Below, piece after piece: positions 16,731 through 50,731 of a DNA stretch of 64,000 nt. The first letter of the stretch is position 1; the number at the start of each line of letters is the position of its first letter. The DNA is taken from the NCBI GenBank assembly GCA_016784965.1, contig JADHTQ010000014.1:1-64000 (forward strand), in the 5' to 3' direction. Below the pieces are notes generated by a model, which ran no database searches, was not told the DNA's origin, and saw only the letters and a list, made by a program, of their open reading frames with translations. Source of the stretch: Bacteriovoracaceae bacterium (GTDB lineage Bacteria; Bdellovibrionota; Bacteriovoracia; Bacteriovoracales; Bacteriovoracaceae). Made by a program: the position numbers and the translations under genes.

Positions 16731-16745
16731 TGAGACAAAGTCTCA
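16731..16745. promoter_or_regulatory. Palindromic operator candidate of the rubrerythrin-like gene
   Basis: TGAGAC-AAA-GTCTCA, a perfect 6-3-6 dyad of 15 bp, 45 bases upstream of the diiron protein start. The TGA...TCA outline and 15-bp length recall Fur/PerR-family boxes, but it does not match their consensus exactly. Confidence 0.45.
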
Positions 16746-42583: not shown

Positions 42584-45199
42584 TTACTTTTGGCCCATCA
42601 TTGCAAGCCACATACGTCTACTAGTAATTCTATTGTTGGTATTTCTGTTTGTGTGTAGTTGTTGTTTTGCAAAAGCAAATGATTTGATCATTTTCCACCA
42701 GATTACTATTTTGCCCATATTTAGACTGCCTAGACGTAAATACTCCTCAGTACGTTTTTGCATCTGTTGCAGGTGTAGTGTTGCTTTGGATAGCTCTTTT
42801 TTTATGTGGTTTTGCTCAACTTGTAAGTTTTGGGTGCGCAGTTTATTGTAGTTAAATAGTTCATTTTTGGCCAACTTTGGATTAGAGGCCGCAACGTGCT
42901 CACTTTTTAACTGTAGCAACTGTTGAGTAATTTGTTCGTCCTTTTTAAGTAACCTTTTAATTAACAATTTTTGTTGGAAATAGTTGTAAAAAGAGGATCT
43001 GTCATTGCTTTGTGATGCTTCTTGCATACGTTTTGAAATATGTCCTATTAGGTGATGTTGCTTACTTTGAACCTTGTTGTCAATTTCACTAAAAGTAAAG
43101 TCTGTTTGCTGCAAGATCTCATCTAAAGAGGGAAGAACAATTTCTAGGTAGCGGTTTAAATGTTGCTTAGGATCTTTAATTAGAGCTTGAAGTGCCTTTA
43201 CTCTTTCATTGTAATCACTGGCCGCCTTTATGTGTAAGTCAGCAAAGTCACTGCGCAAGTAGTCCCAAAAACGTGCACTGGCAGATTTATCCAAAGGATC
43301 TATCACTTGAGGGTTAATCTCTTCTAGTAACTGGTAGAAGGCATCTACTAGCAAAATACTATTTGCAGGGATTAATCCGCCGTACACTTTTTTAACATCT
43401 TTTTCATCAAAAAATAAAAAGCACTGTTTTAGAAACTTTTCTTCCCACTCATTTAATTCGTCTTGCTTTCCTGTAATAATCTCTGCTTCTTTTTTGCCCT
43501 GTCTGGCCAAAAAGGGGCTTAAAAACACTATATCGGCCAGGTCAATTAAAACTGACATGATTAAAACCATTAACATAACAATTTGTGCCCAAAGCATCCC
43601 ATACTTGCCCTTAAGTAGCATAATCAGCTCATTAAATGACTTGTATTTAACTTTTCTGATACCTTTTTTAAGTGCTGTAACTGCTTTTACATTCATCGGA
43701 GGAAAAGTTATTGTAACGTTATAAGTTCTGGCCTTGGCGTAGCCTGAGCGATCAATTTGTCTTAATACTTTTATGTATTGCTCGATCATAGTTTTTAGCT
43801 GCACAACGGTACTGCGGTATTGCGAGGCAGTTTTGTTAAAGCTTTTTGTCATCGTCTTGGCAACACTATTTAAATCATAGTATTCAACAAATGCCATATT
43901 TAAAAAGTCTGGCAATGGACTGTCGTTTTTAATACTGGCATCCAACTTTTTTAAATGATTGTTTATCTCACTTTGTTGTTCTTTTACAAAATTTTCATAG
44001 CCTACTATTAAGGTGTCGATCTTTGCAGCTAGAGAAAGCTTAAAGTCTACTCCACTGGACTGAATGATAGCATCAATCTTATTGGATAATCTTTTACTGC
44101 GAGTTAGGTTAGAAACAATATTTTTGTTTTTATCATAAGCTCCATGAACTACAAAATTTTTACCCCAATACCTTGGACCTTGCCCCGATCGGCCACTAGA
44201 GGCCTTGCCACTTGCTTCTACCATAGGAAATTGGTTAAATTGGGCCTTAATCGTTTGCGCTTTTTGTTTTAGGGCCTCAACAGATTGATAAAAGGAGGTT
44301 ACAGAAGCCTGCTTGTCGCTCATTACAGTGTCAAAAGCTGCAGCCGCTTGAGCATGGATATGTGTATGCTCCTCAGTGATGTACTCAGACTTAGATAAAA
44401 GTGCAATTCCTCCATCATAATTAGTCTTAAGAGAAACCATTAGCATGATAGTAGAAAAGATCATAGTCCATGGATATTTAAAGTAAGCAGTTTGAATCCC
44501 CTTAAATACTTTTCCTGCAGATAAAATGCAGTGATAAAACGAAACCTTTAGGTGTAAAATGATGTATGAAAGCAAACACCCACCGATGAATGAGGTAATA
44601 AGGCGCAAAATCTCCCCCTGGTCACCATTAAACATTGATAAGATTGCAGCATCACTACCTTGTAAGAGATGATTTACTCCGTATCCCGTTGTAAAAGACG
44701 AAACGATAAAAGTAAGTACCCCTAAAATGCTTAAGGCCTTCGATCTAATCGGTTCTATAGTTTTTGGGCCATAACCGCATAGCTGCTTCATCGAGGTAGT
44801 AAAGTAAGCTTTGGCAGAATTGTGGAAGCAGCTAAATAGATCTTGGGCCAAGTGATAAAAAGAGTTCTTCTTTAAAAAGGGCTCATTATCTTTCAGTCGT
44901 GTATGATGAAAAAAGTCATGTAAATCTCTTGCCGTATTGCCATTTGGATTGCTTTCTACTTCTTTTTGCAAGACGTGAGCTTTTTGCATAATTATCTTAC
45001 CGCGATAATATTCTTGATGCGAAAAAATATTGGAACGTTGATTATCATCACTAAATAAATTGAAGATATTTACTGAAGGTTTTTCAAAAAAACCCTTGGG
45101 CCTTAACATCTGCCCTAGAAAATAATTATAATTTGTCATCAAGGGAGTCCGAGGATTGATTTTTGACCTTTTGTTTTTGCTATGAATATTATTTTCCAC
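42584..45199 (-). CDS. Multi-pass membrane protein with coiled-coil domains, copy 1 of 2
   Basis: 871 residues. I place the start at the GTG at 45197-45199: a GGAGGT lies five bases upstream, and the same layout occurs in the paralogue. The ATG at 45211 overlaps this ribosome binding site. The N-terminus contains NYNYFLGQML and the conserved LHDFFH block. Three membrane segments lie between about 160 and 270, and one near 560-585 (LWAQIVMLMVLIMSVLIDLA). Between them is a large helical, probably periplasmic domain. After the last segment come a cytoplasmic part (KGKKEAEII, FLKQCFLFFDEKDV) and an Ala/Gln coiled coil. It shares most of its length with the 837-aa protein. A consensus sigma-54 promoter lies 48 bases upstream. 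Function unknown; topology recalls DUF4407-like proteins. Confidence 0.85.
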   Translation of the reverse strand: MENNIHSKNKRSKINPRTPLMTNYNYFLGQMLRPKGFFEKPSVNIFNLFSDDNQRSNIFSHQEYYRGKIIMQKAHVLQKEVESNPNGNTARDLHDFFHHTRLKDNEPFLKKNSFYHLAQDLFSCFHNSAKAYFTTSMKQLCGYGPKTIEPIRSKALSILGVLTFIVSSFTTGYGVNHLLQGSDAAILSMFNGDQGEILRLITSFIGGCLLSYIILHLKVSFYHCILSAGKVFKGIQTAYFKYPWTMIFSTIMLMVSLKTNYDGGIALLSKSEYITEEHTHIHAQAAAAFDTVMSDKQASVTSFYQSVEALKQKAQTIKAQFNQFPMVEASGKASSGRSGQGPRYWGKNFVVHGAYDKNKNIVSNLTRSKRLSNKIDAIIQSSGVDFKLSLAAKIDTLIVGYENFVKEQQSEINNHLKKLDASIKNDSPLPDFLNMAFVEYYDLNSVAKTMTKSFNKTASQYRSTVVQLKTMIEQYIKVLRQIDRSGYAKARTYNVTITFPPMNVKAVTALKKGIRKVKYKSFNELIMLLKGKYGMLWAQIVMLMVLIMSVLIDLADIVFLSPFLARQGKKEAEIITGKQDELNEWEEKFLKQCFLFFDEKDVKKVYGGLIPANSILLVDAFYQLLEEINPQVIDPLDKSASARFWDYLRSDFADLHIKAASDYNERVKALQALIKDPKQHLNRYLEIVLPSLDEILQQTDFTFSEIDNKVQSKQHHLIGHISKRMQEASQSNDRSSFYNYFQQKLLIKRLLKKDEQITQQLLQLKSEHVAASNPKLAKNELFNYNKLRTQNLQVEQNHIKKELSKATLHLQQMQKRTEEYLRLGSLNMGKIVIWWKMIKSFAFAKQQLHTNRNTNNRITSRRMWLAMMGQK

Positions 45200-45246
45200 A
45201 AATACCTCCATTTTTTACAACAATCAATTTCGATAAATTTTTAAAT

Positions 45247-45262
45247 TGCAACATAAGTGCCA
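45247..45262 (-). promoter_or_regulatory. Sigma-54 promoter of the 871-aa membrane protein gene
   Basis: On the minus strand it reads TGGCAC-TTATG-TTGCA, an exact consensus match, 48 bases upstream of the GTG start at 45199. Confidence 0.88.
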
Positions 45263-45335
45263 ATTGATACCTGTGCAGCTTTTACGCGCATATGGCCTTG
45301 AACCTGTGGTGTAAAAAGTGTTGGATACCACATAG

Positions 45336-45358
45336 GTGTCGCACCAATTGTGTTGCAC
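45336..45358. repeat. Direct repeats GTGT(C/T)GCAC between divergent sigma-54 promoters
   Basis: GTGTCGCAC (45336-45344) and GTGTTGCAC (45350-45358), 14 bases apart start to start. A similar pair occurs at the paralogous locus (48572 and 48590). They lie between the two divergent sigma-54 promoters and are candidate activator sites. Confidence 0.5.
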
Positions 45359-45415: not shown

Positions 45416-45431
45416 TGGCACACAAACTGCA
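45416..45431 (+). promoter_or_regulatory. Sigma-54 promoter of the 45-aa gene
   Basis: TGGCAC-ACAAA-CTGCA matches 15 of the positions expected for TGGCAC-N5-TTGCW, with the invariant GG and GC kept. It is 40 bases upstream of the ATG at 45471. Confidence 0.7.
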
Positions 45432-45470: not shown

Positions 45471-45608
45471 ATGCGTGCAGTATTTGAGATATTTCTTGCG
45501 ATATTTTTCACCATAACAGTAGGGATTACATTGTTAAATCTATGTTCTACCATAAAGGCCCACGATTATAGTAAGGGCCATACATCCATTCTAATTGCCA
45601 AAGATTAG
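45471..45608 (+). CDS. 45-aa single-pass membrane peptide
   Basis: A small gene with AGGAG seven bases before the ATG. The product (MRAVFEIFLAIFFTITVGIT...) has one membrane helix at residues 4-25 and a short polar tail ending SILIAKD. It lies directly behind a sigma-54 promoter and opposite the 871-aa membrane protein gene, so it may be a small partner or regulator of that protein. No family is known. Confidence 0.65.
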   Translation: MRAVFEIFLAIFFTITVGITLLNLCSTIKAHDYSKGHTSILIAKD

Positions 45609-45693: not shown

Positions 45694-45933
45694 TTGCAAG
45701 AGGAGACGCTTATGACTGATGTGCAAGTGAGTGACAAGGGATTTGTTCCAGCGGCTTTATTATGTCTTTTTTTAGGTGGTTTTGGGCTGCATAGATTTTA
45801 TGTAGGGAAGATAGGAACTGGGATATTGATGTTAATTACTCTAGGTGGATTGGGTATTTGGACTTTAATTGACCTGATACTCATAATTATGGGAGTCTTT
45901 AAAGACTCAAATGATTTACCTCTTAAACGTTAG
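45694..45933 (+). CDS. TM2-domain membrane protein
   Basis: 79 residues. A GAGGAG site precedes the ATG. The TM2 domain is complete: ALLCLFLGGFGLHRFYVGK with the GxHRFY motif, then a second helix GIGILMLITLGGLGIWTLID followed by LILI. TM2 proteins are small two-helix membrane proteins of uncertain role. It lies between the two paralogous membrane protein genes and its last 11 bases overlap the end of the convergent 837-aa gene. Confidence 0.85.
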   Translation: MQEETLMTDVQVSDKGFVPAALLCLFLGGFGLHRFYVGKIGTGILMLITLGGLGIWTLIDLILIIMGVFKDSNDLPLKR

Positions 45934-48436
45934 AGTGGCCATTTATCATCGATAACCACTTGCGACGACTATTGACTGCTTTTGTCTTGTGTTTAGTGCT
46001 GTAGAGGCCATGGGCACACAAAAATGAGTTGAGCATTTTTTTGCAAATTTCAAACTTACTAAGGTGTATAGTGTTATGAAGCAAGTAATTTTCGCTTCTA
46101 ATTTGCAGCAGATCTAATTCTGCTTGGGCCGCTTCCAGCTGCTGCTTGATTCGCTCTTGCTCTTTTATTAAACTTAGCTTGCGAAGCTTACTTACGTTGA
46201 ATGCTTCTTCCATATTGGTGGCAGTTACAACTGTGGCCAACTTATTTTCTTTATTTTTTAGCTCGACCTCTGCAGAGGATAGTTTTAGTAGCTGCTTTGC
46301 AATTTGCACTTCATCTTTGTGCAGTTTTGTTACTTGTCTTTTTTGTTGGTAGTAAAGATACATTGAGGGACCATCATGGTCACATGCAGCATCATTCATT
46401 CGTTTGCTGATATCTTCTAATATCTGATTTTGCTTTCCTTGCACTCTTCTATCAAGTTCGTCGAAAGTAAAATCAGCTTGATCTATGATTTTATCCAAAT
46501 GTGGCAAAATGATATCTAGGTAGCGCCCCAAGTAATAATCTGGGTGTAAAATTAAGTGTTGAATTGCCTCTACCCGCTCATTGTAATCAGTTGCCGCAAG
46601 GGTATGTAGTGGCCGGAAATCATTTTTTACATAATCCCAAATGCGCTCACCCAGTGATTTGTCAAGAGGATCAATTAATTGAGGATTGATCTCTTCTAAT
46701 AAATGATAAAATGAATCTACTAGCATTATACTATTTTGTGGTATTAGACCACTATATACTTGCAAAACATCCTTTTCATCAAAAAACAAAAAGCACTGTT
46801 TTAAAAATTTGTCTTCCCACTCGTGTAGCTGCTCTTGTTTGCCTGGAACAATTTCGGACTCTTTTTTTCCCTGTTTGGCCAAGTTAGGTGCAAGCAGTAT
46901 AATGTCGACAAGGTCAATTAAGACAGACAAAACTAATAACAACACCATAAAAAATTGCGCCCAAAGGACTCCGTATTGATTTTTAAATGTATGGGTCAGA
47001 TCATCATATGACATATGTTTAAGCTTTAAGTTTGCTGCACTAAACTGATTCATTGCACCTGAATTTAAAGATGGTAAGGATAAGACCAATGCGTCTGATT
47101 TGGTAAACGAATTATCTGATTGCTCAATTTGTCTAAGTACTTTTGCATACTGATCAATCAGGGTTTTAAACTTAGTGATAGTCTCACTATAATTACTATA
47201 AATAACATTAAAGCTTTTTGCTATTTGTTGTTTAGTATCGTTGATGTCATAGTAACCAACAAATGACTTATCAATAACAGTTGGCAGAAGACTATTTTGA
47301 CTATTTATAAAGTTATCTAGCTTATTTGTTAGTTTATTAATTTGAGAAAGTTGTAATTTGGCCGTATTTTCATAATCGCCGACAATCGCAGTGATTTTGG
47401 TCTCAATGGGTACTTTGAAATCTAGGCCACTTGCTTGCATAATTGCATCAACTCTTTTTGATGTGACCTTTGTGGTATCTTTTGCTGCTACTAAGGGGAA
47501 TTGATTGAAGTGGGTGATAACTGTTTGTGCCTTTTGTTTGATGGCAATAACCGATTCATTGATAGGTGCAAATGCAGCTGTTGTTTGTTTTAAAATGTGT
47601 GCATGCTCCTGATTGATGTGTTGTGACTTAGACAACAATGCAACTCCCCCGTCGTAGTTAGTTTTAAAAGAAACTAGTAGCATTAAAGTAGAAAAAAGCA
47701 TGGTCCAGGGGTACTTAAAATAAGCAGTTTTTATACCTTTTATAACTTTACCCGTCGATAGGATGGACCTATAGAGTGATACCTTTAAATGAATTATTAT
47801 ATATGATAAAAGACAGCCCACGATAGTTGCCGCTATGACTCTAAATATGGCCCCCTTATCACCTTGAAATAGTGATAATATGGAGTAATTGCTGTTTTCT
47901 TGTAAGTAGTGATTTAGTGCAAATCCCGTAGTAAAAGTTGAAAGTAAGAAGGTGATGACGCCCAGGATAGTTAGAGCAGTAGACTTAATGGGCATAATTT
48001 GAGTCGGACTAAAGTTGCATAGCTGTTTCATAGAGTTTATAAAGTGCTGTTTGGCAGCGCTATGAAAATAGATAAAAATCTGTTGCGCTAGTTTGTAAAA
48101 AGGGTTGCGCTTTAGGATAAGCTCTTGGTCTTTGTCTGCTGAGATATTAAAAAAATCATGTAGGTCTTTTGCAGTATGACCACCTGGGTTTTGGGTAATC
48201 TCATCTTTTAACTCTTGTCCTGTTTTCATCACTTGCTGACCTTTGGAGTAGCCATTGTAGGTAAAAAGATTAGAGCGTTGATTGCCGTTATTTAGCAGAT
48301 CAAAAATAGTTACCTTAGGTCTTTCAAATAAGGCAGAGGGATTGATCAGTTTTCCAATGAAGTAGTTGTAGTTATTGAGTAGGTGGGTTCGAGCATTATT
48401 TTGTTCACTTAAGGTATTTAATTTCTTTTTTTCCAC
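45923..48436 (-). CDS. Multi-pass membrane protein with coiled-coil domains, copy 2 of 2
   Basis: 837 residues from the GTG at 48434-48436, with GGAGGT five bases upstream exactly as in copy 1. It shares with copy 1 the N-terminal NYNYFIG and QRSNLF, the LHDFF block, the three-segment membrane region, the helical domain, the last membrane segment (LWAQFFMVLLLVLSVLIDLV), the FLKQCFLFFDEKDVLQVYSG block and RRKWLSM at the end. It lacks about 30 residues in the helical domain and has a different coiled coil near the C-terminus. A consensus sigma-54 promoter lies 43 bases upstream. The shared promoter and gene layout suggest a duplication of the whole unit. Confidence 0.85.
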   Translation of the reverse strand: MEKKKLNTLSEQNNARTHLLNNYNYFIGKLINPSALFERPKVTIFDLLNNGNQRSNLFTYNGYSKGQQVMKTGQELKDEITQNPGGHTAKDLHDFFNISADKDQELILKRNPFYKLAQQIFIYFHSAAKQHFINSMKQLCNFSPTQIMPIKSTALTILGVITFLLSTFTTGFALNHYLQENSNYSILSLFQGDKGAIFRVIAATIVGCLLSYIIIHLKVSLYRSILSTGKVIKGIKTAYFKYPWTMLFSTLMLLVSFKTNYDGGVALLSKSQHINQEHAHILKQTTAAFAPINESVIAIKQKAQTVITHFNQFPLVAAKDTTKVTSKRVDAIMQASGLDFKVPIETKITAIVGDYENTAKLQLSQINKLTNKLDNFINSQNSLLPTVIDKSFVGYYDINDTKQQIAKSFNVIYSNYSETITKFKTLIDQYAKVLRQIEQSDNSFTKSDALVLSLPSLNSGAMNQFSAANLKLKHMSYDDLTHTFKNQYGVLWAQFFMVLLLVLSVLIDLVDIILLAPNLAKQGKKESEIVPGKQEQLHEWEDKFLKQCFLFFDEKDVLQVYSGLIPQNSIMLVDSFYHLLEEINPQLIDPLDKSLGERIWDYVKNDFRPLHTLAATDYNERVEAIQHLILHPDYYLGRYLDIILPHLDKIIDQADFTFDELDRRVQGKQNQILEDISKRMNDAACDHDGPSMYLYYQQKRQVTKLHKDEVQIAKQLLKLSSAEVELKNKENKLATVVTATNMEEAFNVSKLRKLSLIKEQERIKQQLEAAQAELDLLQIRSENYLLHNTIHLSKFEICKKMLNSFLCAHGLYSTKHKTKAVNSRRKWLSMINGHSNV

Positions 48437-48478
48437 AAGTACCTCCATTTAAAAACAACGATCTTTTAAATGTTTAAA

Positions 48479-48494
48479 AGCAAAGTATGTGCCA
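48479..48494 (-). promoter_or_regulatory. Sigma-54 promoter of the 837-aa membrane protein gene
   Basis: On the minus strand it reads TGGCAC-ATACT-TTGCT, an exact consensus match, 43 bases before the GTG at 48436. Confidence 0.88.
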
Positions 48495-48571
48495 CTTAAT
48501 CAAAAATAGCAGCTGAGATTGTAAAATTGGGGAATTCCATATTAGTTTCACGGAAAAATGTCTGAGCAAAA

Positions 48572-48598
48572 GTGTCGCGTACTACGGTTGTGTTGCAG
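48572..48598. repeat. Repeat pair like that at 45336
   Basis: GTGTCGCGT (48572-48580) and GTGTTGCAG (48590-48598), 18 bases apart. They match the first seven bases or more of the GTGT(C/T)GCAC pair at the first locus and share the TTGTGTTGCA core. They lie between the divergent sigma-54 promoters. Confidence 0.45.
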
Positions 48599-48619
48599 CA
48601 AATATGTGGCAGCAATAGT

Positions 48620-48633
48620 TATCTAATTAGATA
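48620..48633. promoter_or_regulatory. 14-bp perfect palindrome upstream of a sigma-54 promoter
   Basis: TATCTAATTAGATA, 41 bases upstream of the rightward promoter at 48674. It could be an activator site or an IHF-type bend site. Confidence 0.35.
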
Positions 48634-48673
48634 TAATCAACGTGATTTTAATAAGATATTTAAGTGGAGAAAT

Positions 48674-48689
48674 TGGCACCTAATTTGCT
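48674..48689 (+). promoter_or_regulatory. Sigma-54 promoter of the 61-aa gene and possibly of the activator
   Basis: TGGCAC-CTAAT-TTGCT is an exact consensus match 66 bases upstream of the ATG at 48755. The NtrC-family gene begins 78 bases after the small gene, so this promoter could also drive it. Confidence 0.85.
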
Positions 48690-48754: not shown

Positions 48755-48940
48755 ATGGATGCATTATGTAGAGTAGCAAAACACACTGGAATGCTAGTTG
48801 GAACTTTAGAGAATTTTTTTACTAACATGAACCAACCTACTTATGATTTTGCAAGCCAATCTAGGTGTATTCAGGATTTTTCTATGCCCGGTGGCTATAA
48901 TGATTTTTGTAATCAAGTGCTAGTAGTCAAGCGAGGTTAG
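48755..48940 (+). CDS. 61-aa protein of unknown function
   Basis: A small gene with GAGG 5 bases before the ATG. The product is soluble, has three cysteines and no membrane helix (MDALCRVAKHTGMLVGTLEN at the start, then NFFTNMN). It is behind a consensus sigma-54 promoter and opposite the 837-aa membrane protein gene, the same position as the 45-aa gene at the first locus. The two small products do not look alike. Its promoter and ribosome binding site support it as a real gene. Confidence 0.55.
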   Translation: MDALCRVAKHTGMLVGTLENFFTNMNQPTYDFASQSRCIQDFSMPGGYNDFCNQVLVVKRG

Positions 48941-49018
48941 TGATAATTTCTTAAAGCAATTATGCCCAAAAATGTGTTACACTGTCAGTAAATACTACTT
49001 CAAAGATAACTGGGCGAT

Positions 49019-50731
49019 ATGGGAAATATACTACTGGTTGATGATGAGGAAATGATCCTGTTTACACTTGGCGAGCTGTTAAAGTCTGAAGGCCATAGTA
49101 TTTCCACAGCTTCGAACATGTCTGATGCTTTAGAACAAATTGAAAAAACTACCTTTGATCTGTCGTTTGTGGATATCAGGTTGGGTGATGATGACGGCAT
49201 TGAATTGCTACGTGCTTTGAGGCAAAAAGATCAAAACTGTCCTGTAATTTTAATGACAGGGACACCTACCCTAGAAACAGTTACCGAGGGCCTTAGGCTT
49301 GGGGCCTTTGATTATTTGACCAAACCGGCCAGCCCAGTTGACTTGTTTCGTACAGTAAACTTGGCCCTTAAACAGAAATATTTGGAAGAGGAGTACACAC
49401 AAGCTCGTACAAATTTAGAGGCCATTTTTAAAAGTGTAAAAGATGGAATTATCACAGTAGATTTTGATTACCACCTACTAGAGACCAATGAAGGTGGAGG
49501 CCAGTCAATTTGTGGGATTGATCGCTCATTAATAGGTCATGACATCAGAAATATCAATCTTCCATGTAGCAGAAAGTGTTTAGCACTACTCACTAAGACC
49601 TTAACCACTGGGGTTGTTCATGAAGACAATTATGTTTGTTGTGGACTAGAGCAAAGTAGTGAAAAAATTGTCTCTATCACCTCTTCACCACTGATAAATG
49701 CCCATGACAATTCAATCGGAGCGGTACTAGTAATTCGTGATCAGTCGCGACTAATTGCTCTTGAGCGTGACTTACAAGACCGTCATAGTTTTCATCGCTT
49801 AGTTGGTAGCTCTGAGCAGATGCAGGCCATCTATCGTTTGATTGAAAACTTAAAAGATGTGTCTGCCAATGTATTAATTACAGGAGAAAGTGGTACAGGA
49901 AAAGAGCTAGTAGCAGAAGCTCTTCACCATTTGGGCAATCGAAGTCAAGGCCCTTTAGTTAAGGTAAACTGTGCAGCACTTCCCAACTCTTTACTTGAAA
50001 GTGAGTTGTTTGGACACACCAAAGGTGCCTTTACAGGTGCTGTAAGAGATCAAATCGGGCGGTTTGAGAGGGCCCAAGGCGGAACTATTTTTTTAGATGA
50101 AATTGGAGAGATCTCATCATCTATTCAGGTAAAGCTTCTTAGGGTAATACAAGAAAAAGAGATTGAACGCATAGGGGGACAAAAAACTATCTCAGTTGAC
50201 TTTCGGATTTTGGTGGCAACTAATGCTGATCTTCAAGAAAAAATTAAACAGGGGCAGTTTCGTGAAGACCTTTATTTTAGACTAAAAGTTGTTGAGGTCT
50301 CTATGCCACCTTTGAGGCAAAGAAGAGGGGACATTCCAGAACTTGTTAACCATTTTTTAGAAACTTTAGGAAAAGAATATCAAAGAAAAATTAATAAAGT
50401 CGACGATCAGGTGTTAGATTTATTGATGAACCACCCCTGGCCTGGAAATGTAAGGCAGCTTCGACATACTTTAGAGCATGCAGTAGTGTTATGCCACGGA
50501 CCGGTCATTGGTCTAAATCATTTGCCACCTGATTTTACAACAAAAGCTACTCCAGTCACAACACTTGAGCAAAAGGTCCAAGCTTCTCCCGAGATGGAAG
50601 CACAACAAATTAAAGAAGCTTTAATTGCGTGTGGAGGCAATAAGGCCAAGGCGGCCCGACGTCTAAACATGGATCGCTCAACGCTCTATCGCAAGATTGA
50701 TCGCTATGGAATCAGCATTAGTGTAGATTAA
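49019..50731 (+). CDS. NtrC-family sigma-54-dependent response regulator
   Basis: 570 residues. A receiver domain (1-125) has acidic D8/D9, phospho-acceptor D52 in FVDIRLGDDDG and lysine in LTKPA. A PAS-like domain (about 135-255) carries a cysteine cluster (LPCSRKCL, YVCCGLE). The AAA+ domain (about 270-500) has Walker A GESGTGKE, the sigma-54-contacting GAFTGA loop, and Walker B GGTIFLDEIGE. The C-terminal FIS-type helix-turn-helix is IKEALIACGGNKAKAARRLN. All elements look functional, so it should activate sigma-54 promoters. No partner kinase gene is adjacent. Its own gene may be driven by the promoter at 48674. The Cys cluster may bind a metal or iron-sulfur cluster; that is inference. 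Confidence 0.95.
   Translation: MGNILLVDDEEMILFTLGELLKSEGHSISTASNMSDALEQIEKTTFDLSFVDIRLGDDDGIELLRALRQKDQNCPVILMTGTPTLETVTEGLRLGAFDYLTKPASPVDLFRTVNLALKQKYLEEEYTQARTNLEAIFKSVKDGIITVDFDYHLLETNEGGGQSICGIDRSLIGHDIRNINLPCSRKCLALLTKTLTTGVVHEDNYVCCGLEQSSEKIVSITSSPLINAHDNSIGAVLVIRDQSRLIALERDLQDRHSFHRLVGSSEQMQAIYRLIENLKDVSANVLITGESGTGKELVAEALHHLGNRSQGPLVKVNCAALPNSLLESELFGHTKGAFTGAVRDQIGRFERAQGGTIFLDEIGEISSSIQVKLLRVIQEKEIERIGGQKTISVDFRILVATNADLQEKIKQGQFREDLYFRLKVVEVSMPPLRQRRGDIPELVNHFLETLGKEYQRKINKVDDQVLDLLMNHPWPGNVRQLRHTLEHAVVLCHGPVIGLNHLPPDFTTKATPVTTLEQKVQASPEMEAQQIKEALIACGGNKAKAARRLNMDRSTLYRKIDRYGISISVD

What the first reader, a model, noticed from the sequence alone, without database searches (positions are those of the whole stretch)
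48479..48689. A second divergent sigma-54 pair at copy 2, upstream of the activator gene
Exact matches TGGCAC-ATACT-TTGCT (minus strand) and TGGCAC-CTAAT-TTGCT (plus strand) flank repeats that resemble those at copy 1 and a 14-bp palindrome. The rightward promoter may read through the 61-aa gene into the NtrC-family gene, which would make the regulator autoregulated.
Basis: partly seen in the sequence, partly recalled or inferred. Interest (0 to 1): 0.75.

Follow-up and report, generated by a model that had tools for sequence, protein, structure and literature searches.

The report
Shared enhancer between divergent sigma-54 promoters
In an uncultured relative of predatory bacteria, a 209-bp spacer carries two back-to-back sigma-54 promoters around one activator-binding site, apparently driving an uncharacterised membrane protein one way and its small partner protein, probably with the activator gene itself, the other way: a known type of circuit controlling undescribed genes.

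Summary
Both sigma-54 sites are exact, correctly facing, and not chance: 5 exact sites in the window against 0.18 expected, and 27 in the 4.58-Mb genome against 0 for the reversed pattern. RpoN is present. The "repeats" resolve into one shared element, TGTNGCANCAANTNTGTNGCA, containing the NtrC-like dyad TGCANCA-N4-TGNTGCA. Its exact form occurs only twice in the genome, in the middle of copy 1 and of copy 2. The two spacers are paralogous and were duplicated with the ~850-aa membrane-protein gene in this lineage. Both promoter pairs and the enhancer survived while the proteins fell to 51% identity. The 61-aa gene is real: it belongs to a small family with a conserved N-terminal helix and C-terminal YxxFCxxxLPxKR motif, encoded near the big protein in all four relatives examined. 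Those relatives lack the sigma-54 sites and the activator. There is no terminator and no above-chance sigma-70 promoter in the 78-nt gap before the activator, whose sigma-54-contact, ATPase and phospho-acceptor motifs are intact. Positive autoregulation is therefore likely but unproven. The layout is that of E. coli zraP/zraSR. New member of a known kind, controlling undescribed proteins.

The parts
48480..48494 (-). sigma-54 promoter (-24/-12) TGGCACATACTTTGC driving the 841-aa gene leftward
   Evidence: exact consensus; ORF start 32 nt beyond the -12 element
48674..48688 (+). sigma-54 promoter (-24/-12) TGGCACCTAATTTGC driving the 61-aa gene rightward; predicted start of transcription about 48700
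   Evidence: exact consensus; gene starts about 80 nt after the first base of the site
48580..48611 (.). shared enhancer (UAS) block; core TGTTGCAGCAAATATGTGGCA 48591-48611, dyad TGCAGCA-AATA-TGTGGCA 48594-48611
   Evidence: 21-bp pattern exact only at 45337 and 48591 in the genome; dyad 11/12
48573..48579 (+). extra half-site-like TGTCGCG
48620..48633 (.). 14-bp palindrome TATCTAATTAGATA, between UAS and right promoter; function unknown
45923..48448 (-). copy-2 gene of 841 aa, multi-pass membrane protein family without Pfam match; true start may be GTG at 48434-48436
48755..48940 (+). 61-aa gene, member of a small family with C-terminal YxxFCxxxLPxKR motif found near the big gene
49019..50731 (+). 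sigma-54 activator (receiver - PAS-like - AAA+ - Fis-type HTH), 570 aa
   Evidence: Pfam; GAFTGA, Walker and receiver residues read from the translation
45326..45357 (.). copy-1 shared enhancer; core TGTCGCACCAATTGTGTTGCA 45337-45357
45248..45262 (-). copy-1 leftward sigma-54 promoter, exact
45416..45430 (+). copy-1 rightward sigma-54 promoter, one mismatch (CTGC), before a 45-aa hydrophobic ORF starting at 45471
42584..45211 (-). copy-1 gene of 875 aa, paralogue of the 841-aa gene
   Evidence: 51% identity; sisters in the tree with 100/99 support

Best explanation
The 209-bp spacer is a bidirectional sigma-54 control region. One activator-binding site near its middle (about 64 bp from one -24 element and 87 bp from the other) serves two divergent promoters. 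Leftward, E-sigma54 transcribes the 841-aa membrane protein; rightward, it transcribes the 61-aa partner protein and, by read-through, the adjacent activator gene. The activator, switched on through its receiver domain (phosphorylation by an unidentified, unlinked kinase) and/or its PAS-like domain, binds the NtrC-like dyad TGCANCA-N4-TGNTGCA here and at copy 1, and so turns on both big-protein genes, the small partner and itself (positive feedback). The control region was duplicated with the big gene in this lineage. Shown: promoter sequences, shared element, its restriction to two places, the duplication, the conserved gene family, the absence of a recognisable terminator. Inferred: that this activator is the one that binds, read-through into its gene, and what signals it.
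For: Exact, correctly oriented promoters. RpoN gene present. The 21-bp element is exact only at the two divergent spacers in 4.58 Mb. Of the dyad- or repeat-like hits whose loci were held, only these two places have a sigma-54 promoter pair within 400 bp. Copies 1 and 2 are sisters (100/99) at 51% identity, yet both spacers keep both promoters and the enhancer. The activator has complete Sigma54_activat, receiver and HTH_8 domains. The four relatives with the same gene pair have neither sigma-54 sites nor an activator in the stretches held, so promoters and activator are found together. No terminator or above-chance sigma-70 promoter before the activator. Published precedent for the layout: zraP/zraSR (PMC8249747). 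Activator genes usually lie next to their targets (PMC6615313).
Against: No expression or binding data. The genome holds many other activators of this class (75 first-look candidates), so another could bind. The 78-nt gap could hide a weak promoter: CTGTCA-N17-GATAAC at 48982, and a 9/12 match inside the 61-aa gene at 48818. The dyad is imperfect (11 of 12) at both copies. No integration-host-factor site reached 8 of 9 consensus positions in either spacer.
Confidence: 0.68

Rival explanations
1. The bidirectional sigma-54 region is real and is served by the local activator, but the activator gene has its own constitutive promoter in the gap or inside the 61-aa gene and is not autoregulated.
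For: Many activators are made constitutively (general knowledge); weak sigma-70-like sequences exist at 48818 and 48982.
Against: The match in the gap is no better than shuffled sequence, and promoter-like matches over the whole region are only modestly above shuffles; no terminator separates the genes; same strand with a short gap.
Confidence: 0.2
2. The shared element is bound by a different activator encoded elsewhere; the adjacent activator gene is a bystander or has other targets.
For: The genome encodes many activators of this class and the dyad resembles the general NtrC type.
Against: The element occurs exactly only beside these genes; relatives without the promoters also lack an adjacent activator; activator genes usually neighbour their targets (PMC6615313).
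Confidence: 0.1
3. Chance matches to the sigma-54 consensus in A+T-rich intergenic DNA.
For: The four relatives have no such sites at the same gene pair.
Against: Strong enrichment in window and genome, correct orientation on both sides, and preservation at both paralogous spacers.
Confidence: 0.02

Closest known systems
Escherichia coli zraP / zraSR intergenic region (ZraPSR system)
   Same: A bidirectional spacer recognised by RpoN holoenzyme; an NtrC-family response regulator binds the spacer and controls the target gene on one side and its own operon on the other (PMC8249747; PMC8743547).
   Different: No histidine kinase gene in the operon here; the activator carries a PAS-like domain; the controlled proteins have no family match to ZraP; the small partner gene precedes the activator; the spacer is present in two duplicated copies.
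NtrC-binding enhancer (TGCACYA...TGGTGCA, from my own knowledge)
   Same: Similar inverted half-sites TGCANCA / TGNTGCA.
   Different: Spacing of 4 instead of 3 and imperfect half-sites; a direct-repeat reading (TGTNGCA every 14 bp) fits equally; binding protein not identified.
Clostridial sigma-54 regulons with adjacent activator genes (PMC6615313)
   Same: Activator gene beside its sigma-54-controlled target operon; PAS-type sensory domains common in such activators.
   Different: Different phylum and target genes; divergent shared enhancer not described in the passages read.

Membership tests
sigma-54 (-24/-12) promoter | GG and GC at fixed spacing within TGGCAC-N5-TTGC | tested here: met
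   both exact
sigma-54 (-24/-12) promoter | genome encodes RpoN | tested here: met
   PF04552 match, E = 3.9e-63
sigma-54 (-24/-12) promoter | upstream activator sites at enhancer distance | tested here: inconclusive
   shared element 59-87 bp from the -24 elements; binding not shown
sigma-54 (-24/-12) promoter | transcription depends on RpoN | not testable with these tools
   needs RNA data
NtrC-family sigma-54 activator (49019-50731) | AAA+ sigma-54 interaction domain with GAFTGA motif | tested here: met
   PF00158 236 bits; GAFTGA read in the translation
NtrC-family sigma-54 activator (49019-50731) | receiver domain and Fis-type HTH | tested here: met
   PF00072 and PF02954 above cut-off
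ZraPSR-type system | divergent sigma-54 promoters with a regulator site between them | tested here: inconclusive
   promoters and a candidate shared site present; binding of the site not shown
ZraPSR-type system | histidine kinase gene in the regulator operon | tested here: not met
   no such ORF between 48689 and 51200; next gene is a PilZ protein on the other strand
ZraPSR-type system | regulator is ZraR by curated model | tested here: not met
   NF007689 381 bits against a cut-off of 760
ZraPSR-type system | target is the zinc-binding ZraP | tested here: not met
   no Pfam family for the 841-aa and 61-aa proteins; no NCBIfam match above cut-off

The most novel reading that the evidence does not exclude
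The big membrane protein and the small protein with the YxxFCxxxLPxKR tail form an undescribed two-part envelope module, found in 5 of 48 genera of this order. In this lineage alone it came under a dedicated sigma-54 feedback switch, and the switch was then duplicated together with one of the module's genes.
Probability: 0.45. Interest if true: 0.5.

Novelty: new member of a known kind. Interest (0 to 1): 0.42.

Why it matters
It gives a testable sigma-54 feedback circuit in an uncultured Bdellovibrionota lineage. It links an orphan activator to specific targets through a site found exactly only twice in the genome. It also marks two linked, undescribed protein families. The duplicated control region shows which bases survived, which narrows the functional site to about 32 bp.

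Tried and rejected
Searching the relatives' loci for the same promoters: none found, so conservation could be judged only from the paralogous copy. Integration-host-factor consensus sites between enhancer and promoters: none at 8 of 9 positions. AlphaFold model of the 841-aa protein: mean pLDDT 53.5, all-helical, too poor for a fold search, which was not run. Sequence search of solved structures with the big-protein profile: only noise. Pfam and NCBIfam on the big and small proteins: nothing above cut-off. The histidine kinase linked to the module in relatives: no full-length counterpart in this genome, mostly kinase-domain matches, so it is not proposed as the activator's partner. The class-level search returned the same 129 genomes as the order-level search.

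Full report
Observation. The exact pattern TGGCACN5TTGC occurs 5 times in the window against 0.18 expected from shuffles and 27 times in the 4.58-Mb genome against 0 for the reversed pattern. 17 of the 27 genomic sites lie outside long ORFs and upstream of a correctly oriented ORF, many of which begin with signal-peptide-like sequence. RpoN is encoded. These are therefore credible promoters.

Shared enhancer. The 'repeats' are one element. TGTNGCANCAANTNTGTNGCA matches exactly at 45337-45357 and 48591-48611 and nowhere else in the genome; the next best matches have two mismatches. It can be read as a direct repeat of TGTNGCA at 14 bp, or as an inverted repeat TGCANCA-N4-TGNTGCA at 45340 and 48594, which resembles NtrC-type sites (the NtrC comparison is from my own knowledge). 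A weaker second unit lies 14 bp upstream at both loci, giving a gap-free 32-bp block, 22 of 32 positions identical (45326-45357; 48580-48611). The block lies 59-87 bp from the four -24 elements. Of the dyad- or repeat-like hits whose loci were held, only these two have a sigma-54 promoter pair within 400 bp.

Duplication. The two spacers align along their length, and the interior without the promoters scores above 1000 of 1000 shuffles. The 875-aa and 841-aa genes are 51% identical and are sisters with 100/99 support in a tree with four relatives. So the big gene and its control region were most likely duplicated within this lineage. Both promoters and the enhancer were kept at both copies, although the rightward promoter of copy 1 has one mismatch (CTGC). 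Survival of these bases over such divergence is the best evidence here that they function.

Genes controlled. The big proteins have no Pfam match, no NCBIfam match above cut-off and no solved-structure match and show several hydrophobic segments. The 61-aa gene is real: six family members of 61-221 aa from five genomes share C-x2-A-x3-G-x3-G near the N-terminus and an FCxxxL[P]xKR motif near the C-terminus, with a variable linker between. They lie near the big gene in each genome: divergently in L050 and L053, upstream on the same strand in L052, and about 5 kb downstream in L051. The window genome has just one. In relatives the pair sits with an HD-domain gene and a histidine kinase gene, not with an activator, and without sigma-54 sites. 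Of 129 genomes in the order, only the window's and four others, in 4-5 of 48 genera, hold the full big protein; a sixth genome is a marginal partial hit.

Activator and autoregulation. The 570-aa protein has receiver, PAS-like (below cut-off), sigma-54 interaction and Fis-type HTH domains; GAFTGA, Walker motifs and receiver residues are present in the translation. Between the 61-aa stop (48940) and the activator ATG (49019) there is no terminator-like site and no unusual folding (z = 0.5). The best sigma-70-like match is equalled by 460 of 500 shuffles. Read-through from the rightward sigma-54 promoter is therefore the simplest reading, but it is inference.

Known counterparts. E. coli ZraR binds the spacer between zraP and zraSR and controls both, including itself (PMC8249747), and RpoN holoenzyme binds that bidirectional spacer (PMC8743547). 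The window locus works like that system but is not a member: no kinase gene in the operon, no ZraR model hit above cut-off, no family match of the targets. Novelty lies in the targets and in the duplicated switch, not in the mechanism.

Noticed in passing
window 48434-48448 and the equivalent start of the 875-aa gene (45211 downward): Both big genes read ATGGAGGTAnTTGTGGAA: a perfect GGAGG lies 5 nt before an in-frame GTG, so translation may start at that GTG (residue 5) rather than at the ATG; the conserved MEVxVE may reflect the ribosome-binding site.
   Followed up: no
window 16731-16745 (L106) and G000:C14:86261-86275 (L105): A different perfect element TGAGACAAAGTCTCA (inverted repeat) lies upstream of two other sigma-54 promoters (window 16910 and C14:86348), possibly the site of another activator; only five copies at up to one mismatch in the genome.
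   Followed up: partly
L001-L027 (genome-wide sigma-54 sites): Many predicted sigma-54 targets begin with signal-peptide-like sequence, suggesting a regulon directed at exported or envelope proteins.
   Followed up: partly
window 49019-50731, residues about 165-222: The PAS-like region of the activator holds several cysteines (CSRKC, CC) similar to a GKKC...CEKNC pattern in the closest activator of a relative (L039), which might bind a metal or cluster.
   Followed up: no
window 45471-45608: Copy 1's rightward sigma-54 promoter precedes a 45-aa hydrophobic ORF with a good ribosome-binding site, with no evident similarity to the 61-aa family; the aligned spacers stop matching at about its start codon.
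   Followed up: partly
L050, L051, L052, L053: In relatives the big/small gene pair lies beside an HD-domain gene and a HisKA kinase gene, with a cyclophilin gene also present in L050-L052; the window lacks this neighbourhood.
   Followed up: partly
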